61,738 bases of DNA from a virus. Both the position numbers and the translations under genes were made by a program. Positions 33,893 through 38,357 of the stretch are shown piece after piece (position 1 is the first letter of the stretch; every line of letters starts with the position of its first letter). The notes under the pieces were generated by a model. It did no database searches. It saw nothing but the letters and a program-made list of their open reading frames with translations, and was not told the DNA's origin. The stretch spans positions 1-61,738 of IMG/VR virus record IMGVR_UViG_3300033144_001147. One strand, written 5' to 3'.

Positions 33893-34175
33893 ATCTTTTT
33901 ATTTTAAATTTTAATACATTACATTTCGGGTACAAATACTGAAGAATCTTAAGTCTATGATTTCCTTGAACCACCCAATACTTTCCTTCTTTCTTAGTAA
34001 CCTCTATTAATTCTTTTAATCCGTTATTATCTATATCGTGCAAAAGCCCAGTCCAATCATAACCTCTATCATTAGTTATTAACTGATGTATAGTGTAATT
34101 AGTAAAGTCTCCATTAATATCACAAAGTCTAATATACTCTGTAGTATACTGACTTTTATAATATTTTTTACTCAT
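33876..34175 (-). CDS. ParB/sulfiredoxin-like domain protein, 99 aa
   Basis: The core DWTGLLHDIDNNGLKELIEVTKKEGKYWVVQGNHRLKILQYL (40-80) matches the ParB N-terminal-type fold: GLxxPIxV..., then the nucleotide-binding GNHR motif in place of GxxR. No HTH domain, so it is not a complete ParB. Lone domains like this occur in phages with unproven CTPase or DNA-nicking roles. It sits between groEL and groES and overlaps both (8 and 17 bases), an odd insertion in the chaperonin operon. Confidence 0.75.
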   Translation of the reverse strand: MSKKYYKSQYTTEYIRLCDINGDFTNYTIHQLITNDRGYDWTGLLHDIDNNGLKELIEVTKKEGKYWVVQGNHRLKILQYLYPKCNVLKFKIKRYETNR

Positions 34176-35790
34176 CCTTATTTATTCTCGCGTGAGTAAT
34201 TATAGCGTTAGTAGTTAATATGGTAGTAGCTACACTAATAGCGTTAGACAATGCTTGAGTGGTTACTCTTGCTGGATCAATAACCCCCATATCAAACATA
34301 TTTCCATACTCTCCTGTTACCACGTTATATCCTATATTCTTTTTTTGTTTAGTAGTAAGGCCTCCTTCTGGAAGATTAGGAATAAACCCTGGCTTATCAT
34401 ATATATCTTTTTTATCTAATCCTGCATTTTTTAGAATTTGACGTAAAGGAGCTTCTAAAGCTTCTTTTAATATTTTATGAGAAGTCTTTTTGCCATTATA
34501 AGTTTGAGCTATATTGTATAATAACAACCCTCCTCCTGGCACAATTCCTTCTTGAAGGGCACTGCGCACCGCGCATACCGAGTCATCGACTCGGTCAAAT
34601 TTTTCTTTTTGTTCTATGTCAGATGTAGCACCTACATGTATACATCCTATCCCTCCAACTAAAGAAGCTATTCTTTCATTAATAAAATCCTTCTCATGTT
34701 TAGCTGTTAATCTTTCTTGTTGGTCTCTTAATTCTTCTACTCTATCAATAGTCTCATTAGTAATCTCTCCGTCTTTAATAATGATAGTAGAGTCTTTACC
34801 TACTATAATCTTATCTGCATGCCCTAAGTCTTCCATTCTAATTAGAGATAAATCATCTCCTGTTTTTTCAGAAAAGTATTTAGCTCCTACAGAAAATGCT
34901 ATGTCTTGCATTAACTCGTGAGTTTTATATCCAAATGACGGAGGTTGTATATTACAAAACTTTAATCCATTTCTTTGAACATTGGCTGCCATTGTATTAA
35001 TAACATTCTGTCCGCAATCTCCAATAATTAAAAGCTTGTCTCCCGCATTAATAATAGGTTTTAATATATTCTCAATTTGTAATATGTTACTAATCTCTGA
35101 ATCACATATAAGAATCTTCACTCCTTCATATACACACTCGTCTTTTCTTTGGTCATTAATAAACATAGGAGAAGTCCATCCTCTATCTACTTTAATACCA
35201 TTAGTTACTTCAGCAAAAGTCTTATCTGTTTGAGATCGCTCTACAGTTACTATCCCATCTTTACCAACTTCTTTATATGCTTTAGCTATAATCTCACCAA
35301 TCTCTTTATCATTATTCGCAGAGATGGTTGCTATATCTTCTAACATATTCTCAGTAACCTCAACAGCCTCTGTCTTTATTTTATTATCTATTATCTCTCC
35401 TTGAACTCTGAGCTCTCTAATTATTTTAATTTTATTATCTCCTTCTTTTATATGTTTCTGACCAGCCTTCACTAAAGCTTCAGTTAATACAATAGCAGTA
35501 GTTGTTCCATCACCAGCGGTATTAGCTGTTTTTTCAGAAGCTTGTTTCATCATTCTAACCGCAAGGTTTTCGATTGGGTCAATAAGAGATATTGATTTAG
35601 CTACAGTTACTCCATCTTTAGTAACGGTTAATCCTTGAGTATGTTCTGTTGATTCTATCAATACAGTTTGCCCTTGAGGGCCAAGAGTTGATTTAACTGC
35701 ATTAGATATTTTAGAGATTCCCGAGGTAAGCTTTGTTCTTGCGTCTTCATTAAACGCTAAGTCTTTTGGAATGTATCCAGAGTCTTTCAT
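34168..35790 (-). CDS. groEL: Phage chaperonin GroEL, 540 aa
   Basis: Full-length group I chaperonin: SNAVKSTLGPQGQTVLIE (29-46), TKDGVTVAKSI, and the ATP-binding GDGTTTAIVLTEALVKAG with the DGTTT motif (about 92-109); GIVPGGGLLLYNIA and the C-terminal equatorial domain (VVTGEYGNMFDMGVIDPARVTTQALSNAISVA) follow. The flexible GGM-repeat tail is absent; the protein ends ITHARINKDE. Codon use looks like its neighbours, so transfer is not recent. A TATCTTTG element lies 32-39 bases upstream, and the duplicated TGTCGA element adjoins it. It likely folds phage proteins. Confidence 0.95.
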   Translation of the reverse strand: MKDSGYIPKDLAFNEDARTKLTSGISKISNAVKSTLGPQGQTVLIESTEHTQGLTVTKDGVTVAKSISLIDPIENLAVRMMKQASEKTANTAGDGTTTAIVLTEALVKAGQKHIKEGDNKIKIIRELRVQGEIIDNKIKTEAVEVTENMLEDIATISANNDKEIGEIIAKAYKEVGKDGIVTVERSQTDKTFAEVTNGIKVDRGWTSPMFINDQRKDECVYEGVKILICDSEISNILQIENILKPIINAGDKLLIIGDCGQNVINTMAANVQRNGLKFCNIQPPSFGYKTHELMQDIAFSVGAKYFSEKTGDDLSLIRMEDLGHADKIIVGKDSTIIIKDGEITNETIDRVEELRDQQERLTAKHEKDFINERIASLVGGIGCIHVGATSDIEQKEKFDRVDDSVCAVRSALQEGIVPGGGLLLYNIAQTYNGKKTSHKILKEALEAPLRQILKNAGLDKKDIYDKPGFIPNLPEGGLTTKQKKNIGYNVVTGEYGNMFDMGVIDPARVTTQALSNAISVATTILTTNAIITHARINKDE

Positions 35791-36349: not shown

Positions 36350-36840
36350 AAAATTTTTTTAGATGTCTGGGGGTTGAGGGTTATTATAGGTGATACGATG
36401 GAAGTCCGGTATAGAAAAGTGATTTGTTTTTTGGGGGTGGGGGTGTTGTTTTCAAAATTTCCAGTCCGATTTTTTGGGGTTTTTCTGGTGGTGGTTGGTT
36501 GTGTGTGTGTGTGTCTGGTTGTGGTGGTGGTTGTGGTGGTGGTTGTTCCTCTGTCTGTCTGTCTGTCTGTCTGTTTCTCTGTCCGTCCGTCCTCCTTCCC
36601 TCGTTCCGTTCGAAGATCTTAAATAATATGTATATAAATACATTAAATTGTTAAACCTTCCCCCAATTAATCGACTAAATAAAACATTTAGACACTGAAA
36701 GAAAGGGAATAATACCCCCACGAACACACCGAAACACAAACAAAACACCAAGAAAACACAAATTTTTTTTCTCTCTAACTACCTGAACATCAACAACTTA
36801 AAAATTATTTTCACACTGGGACAAAAATAAAACAAAAATT
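36350..36840. other. Noncoding divergent region with G/T-only low complexity
   Basis: About 490 bases without a convincing gene between the leftmost leftward promoter and the first early promoter. From about 36420 to 36600 the plus strand is almost only G and T, then C and T: runs of G (36369-36373, 36435-36445, 36475-36478), TG/GGT repeats (36485-36545), six tandem CTGT units (36551-36574) and GTCC triples (36581-36592). The remainder (36620-36840) is A-rich with long A/C stretches. Candidates: replication origin, G-quadruplex or triplex-forming element, or packaging signal. Open frames here are composition artefacts. Confidence 0.7.
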
Positions 36841-36841
36841 G

Positions 36842-36874
36842 TTTGTTTATATTAAAATAAATATACTATCTTTG
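36842..36874 (+). promoter_or_regulatory. Early promoter PE1 (TTTG-N21-TATCTTTG)
   Basis: TTTG at 36842-36845, 21 bases, then TATCTTTG at 36867-36874: a complete Bacteroidota housekeeping-type promoter. The first early gene starts at 36922, leaving a leader of about 40 bases. Confidence 0.85.
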
Positions 36875-36921: not shown

Positions 36922-37227
36922 ATGAAAAATTCAGTAAGACAAGAACTAACCGAACACATTAACGATTTCCAAAGAGATGAACAAAATCATTTTACAATGT
37001 TTAACGAGGACTATTATATAATAGGATATTACCAGTCTGAACAATGGTTAAAACTTCATAACATTGGAGAACTGGAAGGAGTTAATATATGTAATGAGTA
37101 TGAGATGGAACATTTCGGAGAGATACAAACAACATTCGACAACACCGAAAAACTGGTAAATCATCTTGTTTACTGGTTCGGACAAGATCTTTGTAATGAG
37201 TTAAACATTCCATTTGATAGAGAATAA
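36922..37227 (+). CDS. First early protein, acidic, 101 aa
   Basis: Not recognised. Acidic with several aromatic residues (DYYIIGYYQSEQWLKLHNIGELEGVNICNEYEMEHF). Being the first gene after the strongest promoter and before a ribozyme, it is probably made earliest and most. A small acidic early phage protein often binds a host protein, but nothing here identifies a target. Confidence 0.75.
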   Translation: MKNSVRQELTEHINDFQRDEQNHFTMFNEDYYIIGYYQSEQWLKLHNIGELEGVNICNEYEMEHFGEIQTTFDNTEKLVNHLVYWFGQDLCNELNIPFDRE

Positions 37228-37229
37228 AA

Positions 37230-37283
37230 GTTAATCTGATGAGGACTAAATGTCCGAAACTGGAAGAAATTCCAGTCATTAAC
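37230..37283 (+). ncRNA. Hammerhead ribozyme HHR-1 (type I)
   Basis: All conserved core bases are present. Stem I GTTAAT / ATTAAC (37230-37235 with 37278-37283); core CTGATGA (37236-37242); stem II GGAC-TAAAT-GTCC (37243-37255); GAAA (37256-37259); stem III CTGGAA-GAAA-TTCCAG (37260-37275); then TC with cleavage predicted after C37277. Ends open at stem I, so type I. It lies between the 101-aa gene (stop 37225-37227) and the lipoprotein gene (ATG 37309), so cleavage leaves a 31-base 5' leader for the latter. Confidence 0.95.
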
Positions 37284-37308
37284 AAATAATTAAATAAATA
37301 AAAAAGTT

Positions 37309-37563
37309 ATGAAAAAATGTATTTTTATAGGTAGTCTTGTTTTCTTCTCTTCTTGTGGGATAGGACACCTAACAACCGAACAACGAGGGGAGATAAACAA
37401 GATAGACAAACAAATGGATGAGTTATGGATTAATTACTCTTACTCAATCGATAGTTTGTATATTAAAAGGGATAGTATCATAGAGAACAACGGAAAATTC
37501 AAAGAATGTTGTATAAAAACCTCTAATGATGTGTATAAACATGAAGGACTAACAATAGAATAA
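37309..37563 (+). CDS. Small lipoprotein, 84 aa
   Basis: MKKCIFIGSLVFFSSCGIG is a lipoprotein signal peptide: two Lys, hydrophobic stretch, lipobox FSSC with Cys16 as lipidated residue. The mature part is a short charged helix (EQRGEINKIDKQMDELWINYSYSIDSLYIKRDSI). Expected in the host membrane facing the periplasm. Early phage lipoproteins of this size are often superinfection-exclusion factors; this is inference. The mRNA segment is bounded by the two ribozymes. Confidence 0.8.
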   Translation: MKKCIFIGSLVFFSSCGIGHLTTEQRGEINKIDKQMDELWINYSYSIDSLYIKRDSIIENNGKFKECCIKTSNDVYKHEGLTIE

Positions 37564-37565
37564 TT

Positions 37566-37841
37566 ATGAACTTACCTAAAATATCAAACATAATCGGACA
37601 CGGAGGAAACGAGGTAAAAAATCAGTTTATCATCCGAACTAAAGGAACAACAATTTTTCAGTCTTACGATAGTATTATTTGTATGATTAATCATAACACC
37701 GGAATAACTACACTGGACAAAAATTACTGGGACTACTCAACAACAACCGGAAAATATAGAAATATATTTTTAGGAGAGAGTAAACAAGATACGGAAAAGA
37801 AAATAAAATCAAAAGAGTATAAACTAAAAAACCTTAATTAA
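37566..37841 (+). CDS. Early protein, 91 aa
   Basis: MNLPKISNIIGHGGNEVKNQFIIRTKGTTIFQSYDSIICMINHNTGITTLDKNYWDYSTTTGKYRNIFLGE: the pattern FxSYxSxI...T.LDxxYWdYSxTTxKYRxxFL is a compact beta-type domain found, as I recall, in several phage early regions without function. It begins 2 bases after the lipoprotein gene. Confidence 0.72.
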   Translation: MNLPKISNIIGHGGNEVKNQFIIRTKGTTIFQSYDSIICMINHNTGITTLDKNYWDYSTTTGKYRNIFLGESKQDTEKKIKSKEYKLKNLN

Positions 37842-37842
37842 G

Positions 37843-37971
37843 ATGAACTACCAAGAAAATGAAATATCGTATTGTGTAAACTATAAAGGACAAAAAATAA
37901 AACCTTATAGGAGTTTACCGACATTACCTAAACCGAGTTTAATTAGAAGAATAATAAACTTTTTTAAGTAA
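37843..37971 (+). CDS. Micro-protein, 42 aa
   Basis: A short ORF: MNYQENEISYCVNYKGQKIKPYRSLPTLPKPSLIRRIINFFK. Basic, with a possible amphipathic C-terminal helix (SLIRRIINFFK). It starts 1 base after the stop of the 91-aa gene, and its stop codon is part of stem I of ribozyme HHR-2, so a ribosome terminating here would melt the ribozyme. Confidence 0.6.
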   Translation: MNYQENEISYCVNYKGQKIKPYRSLPTLPKPSLIRRIINFFK

Positions 37972-38021
37972 TACTGATGAGTGTTTAATACACGAAACTG
38001 GTAGAAATACCAGTCTATTAC
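37968..38021 (+). ncRNA. Hammerhead ribozyme HHR-2 (type I)
   Basis: Stem I GTAATA / TATTAC (37968-37973 with 38016-38021); core CTGATGA (37974-37980); stem II GTGT-TTAAT-ACAC (37981-37993); GAAA (37994-37997); stem III CTGGTA-GAAA-TACCAG (37998-38013); TC with cleavage predicted after C38015. Same 54-base size as HHR-1; every difference within the stems is compensated on the other strand. Stem I contains the TAA of the 42-aa ORF; the next gene starts 25 bases after the cleavage site. Confidence 0.95.
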
Positions 38022-38039
38022 AATAAAAAATATATAAAA

Positions 38040-38357
38040 ATGAAGACAAAAGAAGATATTAAATCTGAAATGATGAGGGACTCTGACTTTAGACAAGAGT
38101 TAAAAAGTGTTTTACTTATAGACTCAAATGTAAAATCAGTTAGACAAAGAATGGAAACAACCCTATCAAATATACAATATCAAAAGGGAGTTATGATGTG
38201 GGATGATGAGGAGAAAATTGAACATTGTATTGAGATACTTAAAATACTGGAGTATGAAACAACACCAGTATATGAGGATCAATGTTGGGATTGTAGAGAG
38301 GATATACAATACACGGACTTACATCCCTTTTGTCCGGAATGTAATCAACACCAATAA
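38040..38357 (+). CDS. Early protein with C-terminal zinc ribbon, 105 aa
   Basis: The N-terminal 75 residues are helical and charged. The C-terminus EDQCWDCREDIQYTDLHPFCPECNQHQ (79-105) carries CxxC-x(12)-CxxC, a zinc ribbon or zinc knuckle. Such an arrangement would suit binding to nucleic acid or to host RNA polymerase. Specific function not recognised. Confidence 0.75.
   Translation: MKTKEDIKSEMMRDSDFRQELKSVLLIDSNVKSVRQRMETTLSNIQYQKGVMMWDDEEKIEHCIEILKILEYETTPVYEDQCWDCREDIQYTDLHPFCPECNQHQ

What the first reader, a model, noticed from the sequence alone, without database searches (positions are those of the whole stretch)
37230..38021. Two hammerhead ribozymes bracketing a 738-nt early mRNA cassette
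Both elements have the full hammerhead core (CTGATGA, GAAA, GTC cleavage triplet) and three perfect stems of 6, 4 and 6 bp. Their stems differ in sequence, and every difference is compensated (stem I GTTAAT/ATTAAC vs GTAATA/TATTAC; stem II GGAC/GTCC vs GTGT/ACAC; stem III GGAA/TTCC vs GGTA/TACC), which is strong evidence of function. Cleavage after 37277 and 38015 would release an RNA that encodes a lipoprotein, a 91-aa and a 42-aa protein. Tandem hammerheads of the same orientation are the arrangement that in other systems yields RNAs with 5'-OH and 2',3'-cyclic phosphate ends that RtcB-type ligases can circularise. A phage messenger made as a discrete, perhaps circular, RNA would be unusual.
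Basis: partly seen in the sequence, partly recalled or inferred. Interest (0 to 1): 0.88.

Follow-up and report, generated by a model that had tools for sequence, protein, structure and literature searches.

The report
Self-cutting RNA punctuation in phage operon
This virus of bacteria carries two tiny RNA motifs that should cut its own messenger RNA between genes; other phages carry the same compact motif, in one case more than a dozen times, and one group with a known laboratory host would allow a direct test.

Summary
Two complete type I hammerhead ribozymes lie at 37230-37283 and 37968-38021 (+), with predicted cuts 37277|37278 and 38015|38016, 738 nt apart. They are the only two found in the window; 300 simulated windows gave no match as good. 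They belong to a compact phage class that Rfam's gathering cut-offs mostly miss. In 112 phage copies found by a query that left stem I and its flanks free, stem I is 6 bp in 111 and capped by A on both sides in 111; both window copies obey this.

The circular-cassette reading is not supported: the bracket is not kept in relatives, RtcB and RNA_ligase gave no match in 29 phage records, and the ends of the 738-nt RNA mismatch at 3 of 6 stem I positions.

Placement supports intercistronic processing: the ribozyme starts at the upstream stop codon, cuts a median 25 nt before the next start, and is on one strand in 44 of 44 multi-copy records. Perreault et al. 2011 already proposed such processing for prophages, so this is a new variant of a known kind. 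Flavobacterium elemo phages offer compensated and naturally broken versions. Nothing was tested experimentally.

The parts
36842..36874 (+). Bacteroidota-type promoter match TTTG-N21-TATCTTTG, 47 nt before the first gene of the rightward block
   Evidence: only exact match on the + strand between 36.6 and 51 kb; 10 in the window on both strands against 3.0 expected. Consensus recalled, not from a call.
36922..37227 (+). 101-aa ORF upstream of hammerhead 1; its stop TAA 37225-37227 begins 5 nt before stem I
   Evidence: phrog_10208, unknown function; 14 relatives in viral contigs
37230..37283 (+). Hammerhead ribozyme 1 (type I); predicted cut 37277|37278; A caps at 37229 and 37284; L2 loop TAAAT
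   Evidence: (73.0 bits)
37278..37308 (+). 31-nt A/U-rich leader that the cut would leave in front of the 84-aa ORF
   Evidence: fold of 37278-37330 no better than shuffles
37309..37563 (+). 84-aa ORF with lipoprotein-like N terminus (by eye)
   Evidence: homologues in L053, L054, L022, L107; no Pfam family
37566..37841 (+). 91-aa ORF
   Evidence: phrog_21575, unknown function; homologues in L053, L054, L057
37843..37971 (+). 42-aa ORF; its stop TAA 37969-37971 lies inside stem I of hammerhead 2
37968..38021 (+). Hammerhead ribozyme 2 (type I); predicted cut 38015|38016; A caps at 37967 and 38022; L2 loop TTAAT
   Evidence: (69.9 bits)
38016..38039 (+). 24-nt leader left in front of the 105-aa ORF, predicted unstructured
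38040..38357 (+). 105-aa ORF downstream of hammerhead 2

Best explanation
The two motifs are self-cleaving type I hammerheads that punctuate a long rightward phage transcript. Each folds once transcribed and cuts between the stop codon of one gene and the start codon of the next. The upstream messenger then ends in the ribozyme's own hairpins with a 2',3'-cyclic phosphate; the downstream messenger starts with a 5'-hydroxyl and a short unstructured leader (31 and 24 nt here). The polycistron is thereby segmented into mono- or oligocistronic mRNAs without a host nuclease, as RNase III sites do in T7 (recalled). Shown here: motif, predicted fold, conservation, tertiary-contact signature, placement, orientation. 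Inferred: cleavage in the cell, end chemistry, effect on mRNA stability or translation. The gene content between the two cuts is probably incidental.
For: Structure: the two stem sets differ with full compensation. Set B, a viral-contig query fixing only core, stem II and L2, gave 113 distinct evaluable matches; 112 form complete hammerheads, stem I 6 bp in 111 of 112, 5' neighbour A in 112 of 112, 3' neighbour A in 111 of 112 (the A.A cap is also what stops stem I at 6). Tertiary code, among copies with 6-bp stem I: L2 TNAAT has A after stem I in 142 of 142, L2 GNAA has U in 12 of 12. Placement: of 102 set B copies evaluable on both sides, 57 have both an upstream ORF stop within 8 nt of stem I start and an ATG ORF 9-45 nt after the cut, against 1.06% of 19,680 random same-strand positions and 0 of 102 on the opposite strand. 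Orientation: in 44 of 44 records with two or more model matches (17, 27) every match is on one strand. Arrays: 15 model matches in G021 (14 of them also found by my scan; the fifteenth is weak, 23.2 bits) and 13 in G054. Named kin: the hammerhead region is in 68 Flavobacterium elemo records, and elemoA_1-9C and elemoC_14-1A differ from elemoA_7-9A by two compensated stem II pairs. In vivo precedent: a halovirus HF2 transcript 5' end mapped within three nt of a hammerhead cut (passage of PMC3088659).
Against: No cleavage was measured. 9 of 14 records that keep the 101-aa gene show no hammerhead (several are fragments), and 6 of 8 named related phage records show none, so it is dispensable. elemoF carries a broken stem II yet was recovered as a phage. 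The elemo copies also have a mismatch in stem III, and their folds do not stand out from shuffles. 9 of 102 copies fit neither boundary criterion and 36 only one. ORF calls are mechanical.
Confidence: 0.77

Rival explanations
1. The pair excises a 738-nt messenger that is circularised by a host RtcB-type ligase or by the ribozyme itself.
For: Two same-strand hammerheads would give a 5'-OH and a 2',3'-cyclic phosphate end on the same RNA (chemistry from established knowledge). Host unknown, so its ligases were not tested.
Against: RtcB and RNA_ligase 0 of 29 phage records each. Ends mismatch at 3 of 6 stem I positions. Bracket and gene order differ in relatives. Perreault et al. report that they could not detect spliced or circular products (passage).
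Confidence: 0.06
2. The hammerheads are conditional switches: a terminating ribosome on the stop codon in or next to stem I keeps the ribozyme unfolded, so cleavage reports the end of translation of the upstream gene.
For: The upstream stop lies within 8 nt of stem I start in 76 of 95 set B copies that have an upstream ORF of 50 aa or more (108 evaluable), including 14 where it is the TGA inside the catalytic core.
Against: The overlap may only reflect tight packing. No ribosome or ligand dependence was shown; cleavage during transcription may precede translation.
Confidence: 0.12
3. The motifs are selfish or neutral passengers spread by recombination at gene junctions, with cleavage tolerated but of no use to the phage.
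For: Patchy presence (5 of 14 relatives), unrelated phages sharing the class (T7-like G021; kin of Flavobacterium podoviruses), elemoF recovered with a broken stem II.
Against: Compensated pairs between near-identical elemo phages and near-invariant caps and stem I length imply selection for activity.
Confidence: 0.12
4. Chance structures that only resemble hammerheads.
For: The bare pattern CTGANGA-N6-30-GAAA is at chance level (5 found, 4.4 expected).
Against: 0 strict matches in 300 simulated windows; 112 of 113 set B matches complete their two free stems; both copies lie at ORF junctions.
Confidence: 0.01

Closest known systems
Clustered hammerheads of prophages and phages (Perreault et al. 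2011, PMC3088659, passages seen)
   Same: Hammerheads flanking single genes or short gene blocks; same proposal of processing long phage RNAs into operon- or gene-length mRNAs; three tandem arrangements gave the expected cleavage products in vitro, one also in E. coli.
   Different: Here: kin of Flavobacterium podoviruses and a T7-like phage; 13-15 model matches in two contigs; one compact type I class with 6-bp A-capped stem I; stop-ribozyme-start spacing measured.
Halovirus HF1/HF2 hammerhead variant HHphage (same paper, passage)
   Same: Hammerhead 13 nt upstream of an early phage gene, with a mapped transcript 5' end near the cut.
   Different: Variant core, archaeal host; clustering not described in the passage seen.
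Rfam RF00163 Hammerhead_1 and RF03152 RAGATH-1-hammerhead
   Same: Type I open stem I; same core.
   Different: In ten phage loci (105 kb) in which my scan lists 38 hammerheads, one reached a gathering cut-off; the window copies do not.
RNase III processing of T7 early mRNA (recalled)
   Same: Intercistronic cuts making gene-length mRNAs with hairpin 3' ends.
   Different: Protein enzyme of the host against cis-acting ribozyme; different end chemistry. G021 is T7-like and has 14-15 hammerheads.

Membership tests
Type I hammerhead ribozyme | Three-stem junction with CUGANGA, GAA and a cleavable NUH triplet, stem I open | tested here: met
Type I hammerhead ribozyme | Helices supported by covariation across relatives | tested here: met
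   13 of 15 pairs with changes on both sides, 44 sequences; rows were chosen by a pairing scan, so 100% pairing is by construction. Set B (112 of 113) is the less biased test
Type I hammerhead ribozyme | Stem I-stem II tertiary contact | tested here: inconclusive
   Indirect support: L2 type covaries with the base after stem I, 142 of 142 and 12 of 12. No structure or mutant was tested
Type I hammerhead ribozyme | Self-cleavage | not testable with these tools
   Needs in vitro transcription
Rfam RF00163 / RF03152 | Score at or above curated gathering cut-off | tested here: not met
   Lowers the claim of filing under these models, not of being a hammerhead
Circular-RNA hammerhead systems (viroid-like, retrozymes) | Ends that can be religated by the same ribozyme | tested here: not met
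   3 of 6 mismatches in hybrid stem I
RtcB-type circularisation | Ligase available in the infected cell | tested here: inconclusive
   PF01139 and PF09414 0 of 29 phage records each, many of them fragments; PF09511 uninformative because its controls were silent; host unknown and not tested

The most novel reading that the evidence does not exclude
Some lytic phages replace host nuclease processing wholesale by self-cleaving RNA: a dedicated compact hammerhead class, tuned by an L2/stem I-cap tertiary code, is placed at the stop codon of gene after gene so that one transcript matures into a set of 5'-OH mRNAs, protected from 5'-monophosphate-dependent decay and ending in ribozyme hairpins.
Probability: 0.45. 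Interest if true: 0.82.

Novelty: new variant of a known kind. Interest (0 to 1): 0.62.

Why it matters
The role of prokaryotic hammerheads is called an open question in a review (PMC6155905, passage). Here the position of about a hundred copies relative to stop and start codons points to one job, intercistronic mRNA maturation. The class mostly escapes Rfam's gathering thresholds, so it is probably under-annotated. Flavobacterium elemo phages, all recorded on one host, offer intact, compensated and naturally broken versions, which makes the question directly testable.

Tried and rejected
Rfam gathering scans of the window and of 23 related loci gave one hammerhead hit and no other ribozyme. 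Pfam found no family for the cassette ORFs; PHROGs gave only families of unknown function for two of the three and none for the 42-aa ORF. Sigma-70 promoter and terminator scans were at chance. Search for T4 Rnl1-type ligase (PF09511) rang in no control, so it is uninformative. The 150-aa neighbour had no match in the phages collection. The genome contigs pattern scan gave five hits that were not followed up.

Results against or limiting: set A (stem III fixed) gave 32 of 39 distinct evaluable matches complete by my contiguous-helix rule; several of the 7 failures look like hammerheads with an extra base or interrupted helix but were counted as failures. Duplicates and matches near contig ends were dropped before those counts. 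Records were picked because they hold the motif, so their 26 of 26 and 50 of 50 are by construction. Some records look like near-duplicates: G021 and G054, G046 and G079 share scores or spacings. In G021 my scan finds 14 of the 15 model matches, and several lie over a mechanically called ORF rather than cleanly between two. Spacing used all 27 multi-copy records but only 6 of 17, plus the window. G003 ends just after its 91-aa homologue, so a second hammerhead there cannot be excluded. The Fisher figure (5e-18) was run on 140 and 12 copies listed, ignores kinship, and is not leaned on. The stop chosen for window hammerhead 2 belongs to a longer overlapping frame; the 42-aa ORF stop inside stem I is read. 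Only 4 of the 68 elemo records were aligned.

Recalled, from no call: T7 RNase III sites, the Bacteroidota promoter consensus, base contacts of compact hammerheads, 5'-OH protection from decay.

Full report
What is there. Two type I hammerheads sit on the + strand at 37230-37283 and 37968-38021, with predicted cuts after 37277 and 38015. They are the only two in the window by a structural scan of both strands. Simulation of 300 windows gave 16 lenient and no strict matches. Both fold into the hammerhead as minimum free energy structure. Rfam finds nothing at gathering cut-off, only a weak RAGATH-1-hammerhead match for the first.

Who carries it. The window is an IMG/VR virus record. Its portal protein is 67% identical to that of a podovirus record from Manatee Spring, 46% to Flavobacterium elemo phages and 34% to Cellulophaga phi38:1, so a Bacteroidota host is likely (inference). 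The hammerheads lie near the head of a rightward gene block; the only exact Bacteroidota-type promoter match on that strand between 36.6 and 51 kb is at 36842-36874 (the pattern as a whole was found 10 times against 3.0 expected).

A class, not a pair. A pattern fixing stem III and the core hit 49 viral contig stretches. Of 113 distinct evaluable matches of the second, 112 have both free stems, and stem I is 6 bp in 111. The base before stem I is A in 112 of 112, the base after it A in 111 of 112. Over the copies with 6-bp stem I in the viral loci then held, TNAAT loops have A after stem I in 142 of 142 and GNAA tetraloops have U in 12 of 12. I read this as a swapped base contact between L2 and the end of stem I (inference). 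Both window copies have TNAAT loops, a G-C sixth pair and A caps. In ten phage loci with 38 hammerheads by my scan one reached an Rfam gathering score.

Where it sits. Upstream ORF stops fall within 8 nt of the start of stem I in 76 of the 95 set B copies with an upstream ORF of at least 50 aa (108 evaluable), 14 of them being the TGA of the catalytic CTGATGA itself; in the 96 of 106 evaluable copies with a downstream ORF of at least 45 aa starting within 100 nt, the start lies a median of 25 nt after the cut. Both conditions, with an ATG required 9-45 nt after the cut, hold in 57 of 102 copies (15 stop only, 21 start only, 9 neither), against 1.06% of random positions and 0 of 102 on the opposite strand. 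In the window the stops begin 5 nt before, and 1 nt inside, stem I, and the leaders are 31 and 24 nt. In 44 of 44 records with two or more model matches all matches lie on one strand. G021 holds 15 model matches on one strand, 14 of them also found by my scan, most at ORF boundaries and some over a mechanically called ORF; it is T7-like: single-subunit RNA polymerase, DNA polymerase, primase/helicase, DNA ligase. Spacing between neighbours has a median of 690 nt in the 34 records used, so the window's 738 nt is ordinary.

Why not a circular cassette. The bracket is not kept: of 14 relatives with the 101-aa gene, 5 have any hammerhead (G001 is near-identical to the window, and G011 and G012 look like one phage), and G002 has one hammerhead with the neighbouring genes reordered. 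RtcB and RNA_ligase gave no match in 29 records each, many of them fragments. The two ends mismatch at 3 of 6 stem I positions. Perreault et al. say they could not detect circular or spliced products in their cases (passage).

A testable system. A covariance search of eight named phage records (seven of isolates, plus the Manatee Spring assembly) found the motif in elemoA_7-9A and, weaker, in elemoF; six had none. The 201-bp region around it matches 68 Flavobacterium records, all on host BAL314, the same number as matched with the portal. Of four aligned, elemoA_1-9C and elemoC_14-1A differ from elemoA_7-9A by two compensated stem II pairs, while elemoF has one strand of each and so a broken stem II; its best fold is no longer a hammerhead. 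Points of caution: stem III of the elemo copies has a mismatch, the MFE fold of elemoA_1-9C adds competing pairs, and none of the three elemo folds stands out from shuffles. Public annotation places a small CDS on the opposite strand across the ribozyme.

Prior art. Perreault et al. [quoted passage not shown] One review calls the prokaryotic role open and notes the link to phages (passage of PMC6155905); another notes all three types in phage genomes (passage of PMC7761336); a 2023 paper says ribozymes are enriched near genes of Mu-like phages for reasons unknown (passage of PMC10085705). My searches (listings only) showed no title or abstract on arrays of this size or on this stem I cap; the library lacks most subscription journals, and Weinberg et al. 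2015 is not held. Hence new variant of a known kind.

Noticed in passing
G021 (IMGVR_UViG_3300042884_000166), L104 and L105; G054 (IMGVR_UViG_3300044732_000574): T7-like phage contig with 15 same-strand hammerhead matches (14 by both methods); a second contig of nearly the same length, probably a close relative, has 13.
   Followed up: partly
L240 4276-4383; L242-L245 37-144: Flavobacterium elemo records annotate a small CDS on the strand opposite to, and over, the hammerhead: probably a gene-caller artefact.
   Followed up: partly
window 34168-35790 (-): Phage-encoded GroEL-like chaperonin (540 aa), 58% identical to one in MW202828.
   Followed up: no
window 36486-36591: Low-complexity TGG and TCTG repeat tract upstream of the rightward gene block and its promoter match.
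   Followed up: no
L007, six hammerheads on the - strand: A shared element, roughly GTCAGGTGCAGACTATAACAGGC, follows each ribozyme 4 nt after stem I and by eye resembles the extra hairpin of the RAGATH-1-hammerhead model, there placed upstream.
   Followed up: no
G056 1254-2959: Five hammerhead matches within 1.7 kb.
   Followed up: no
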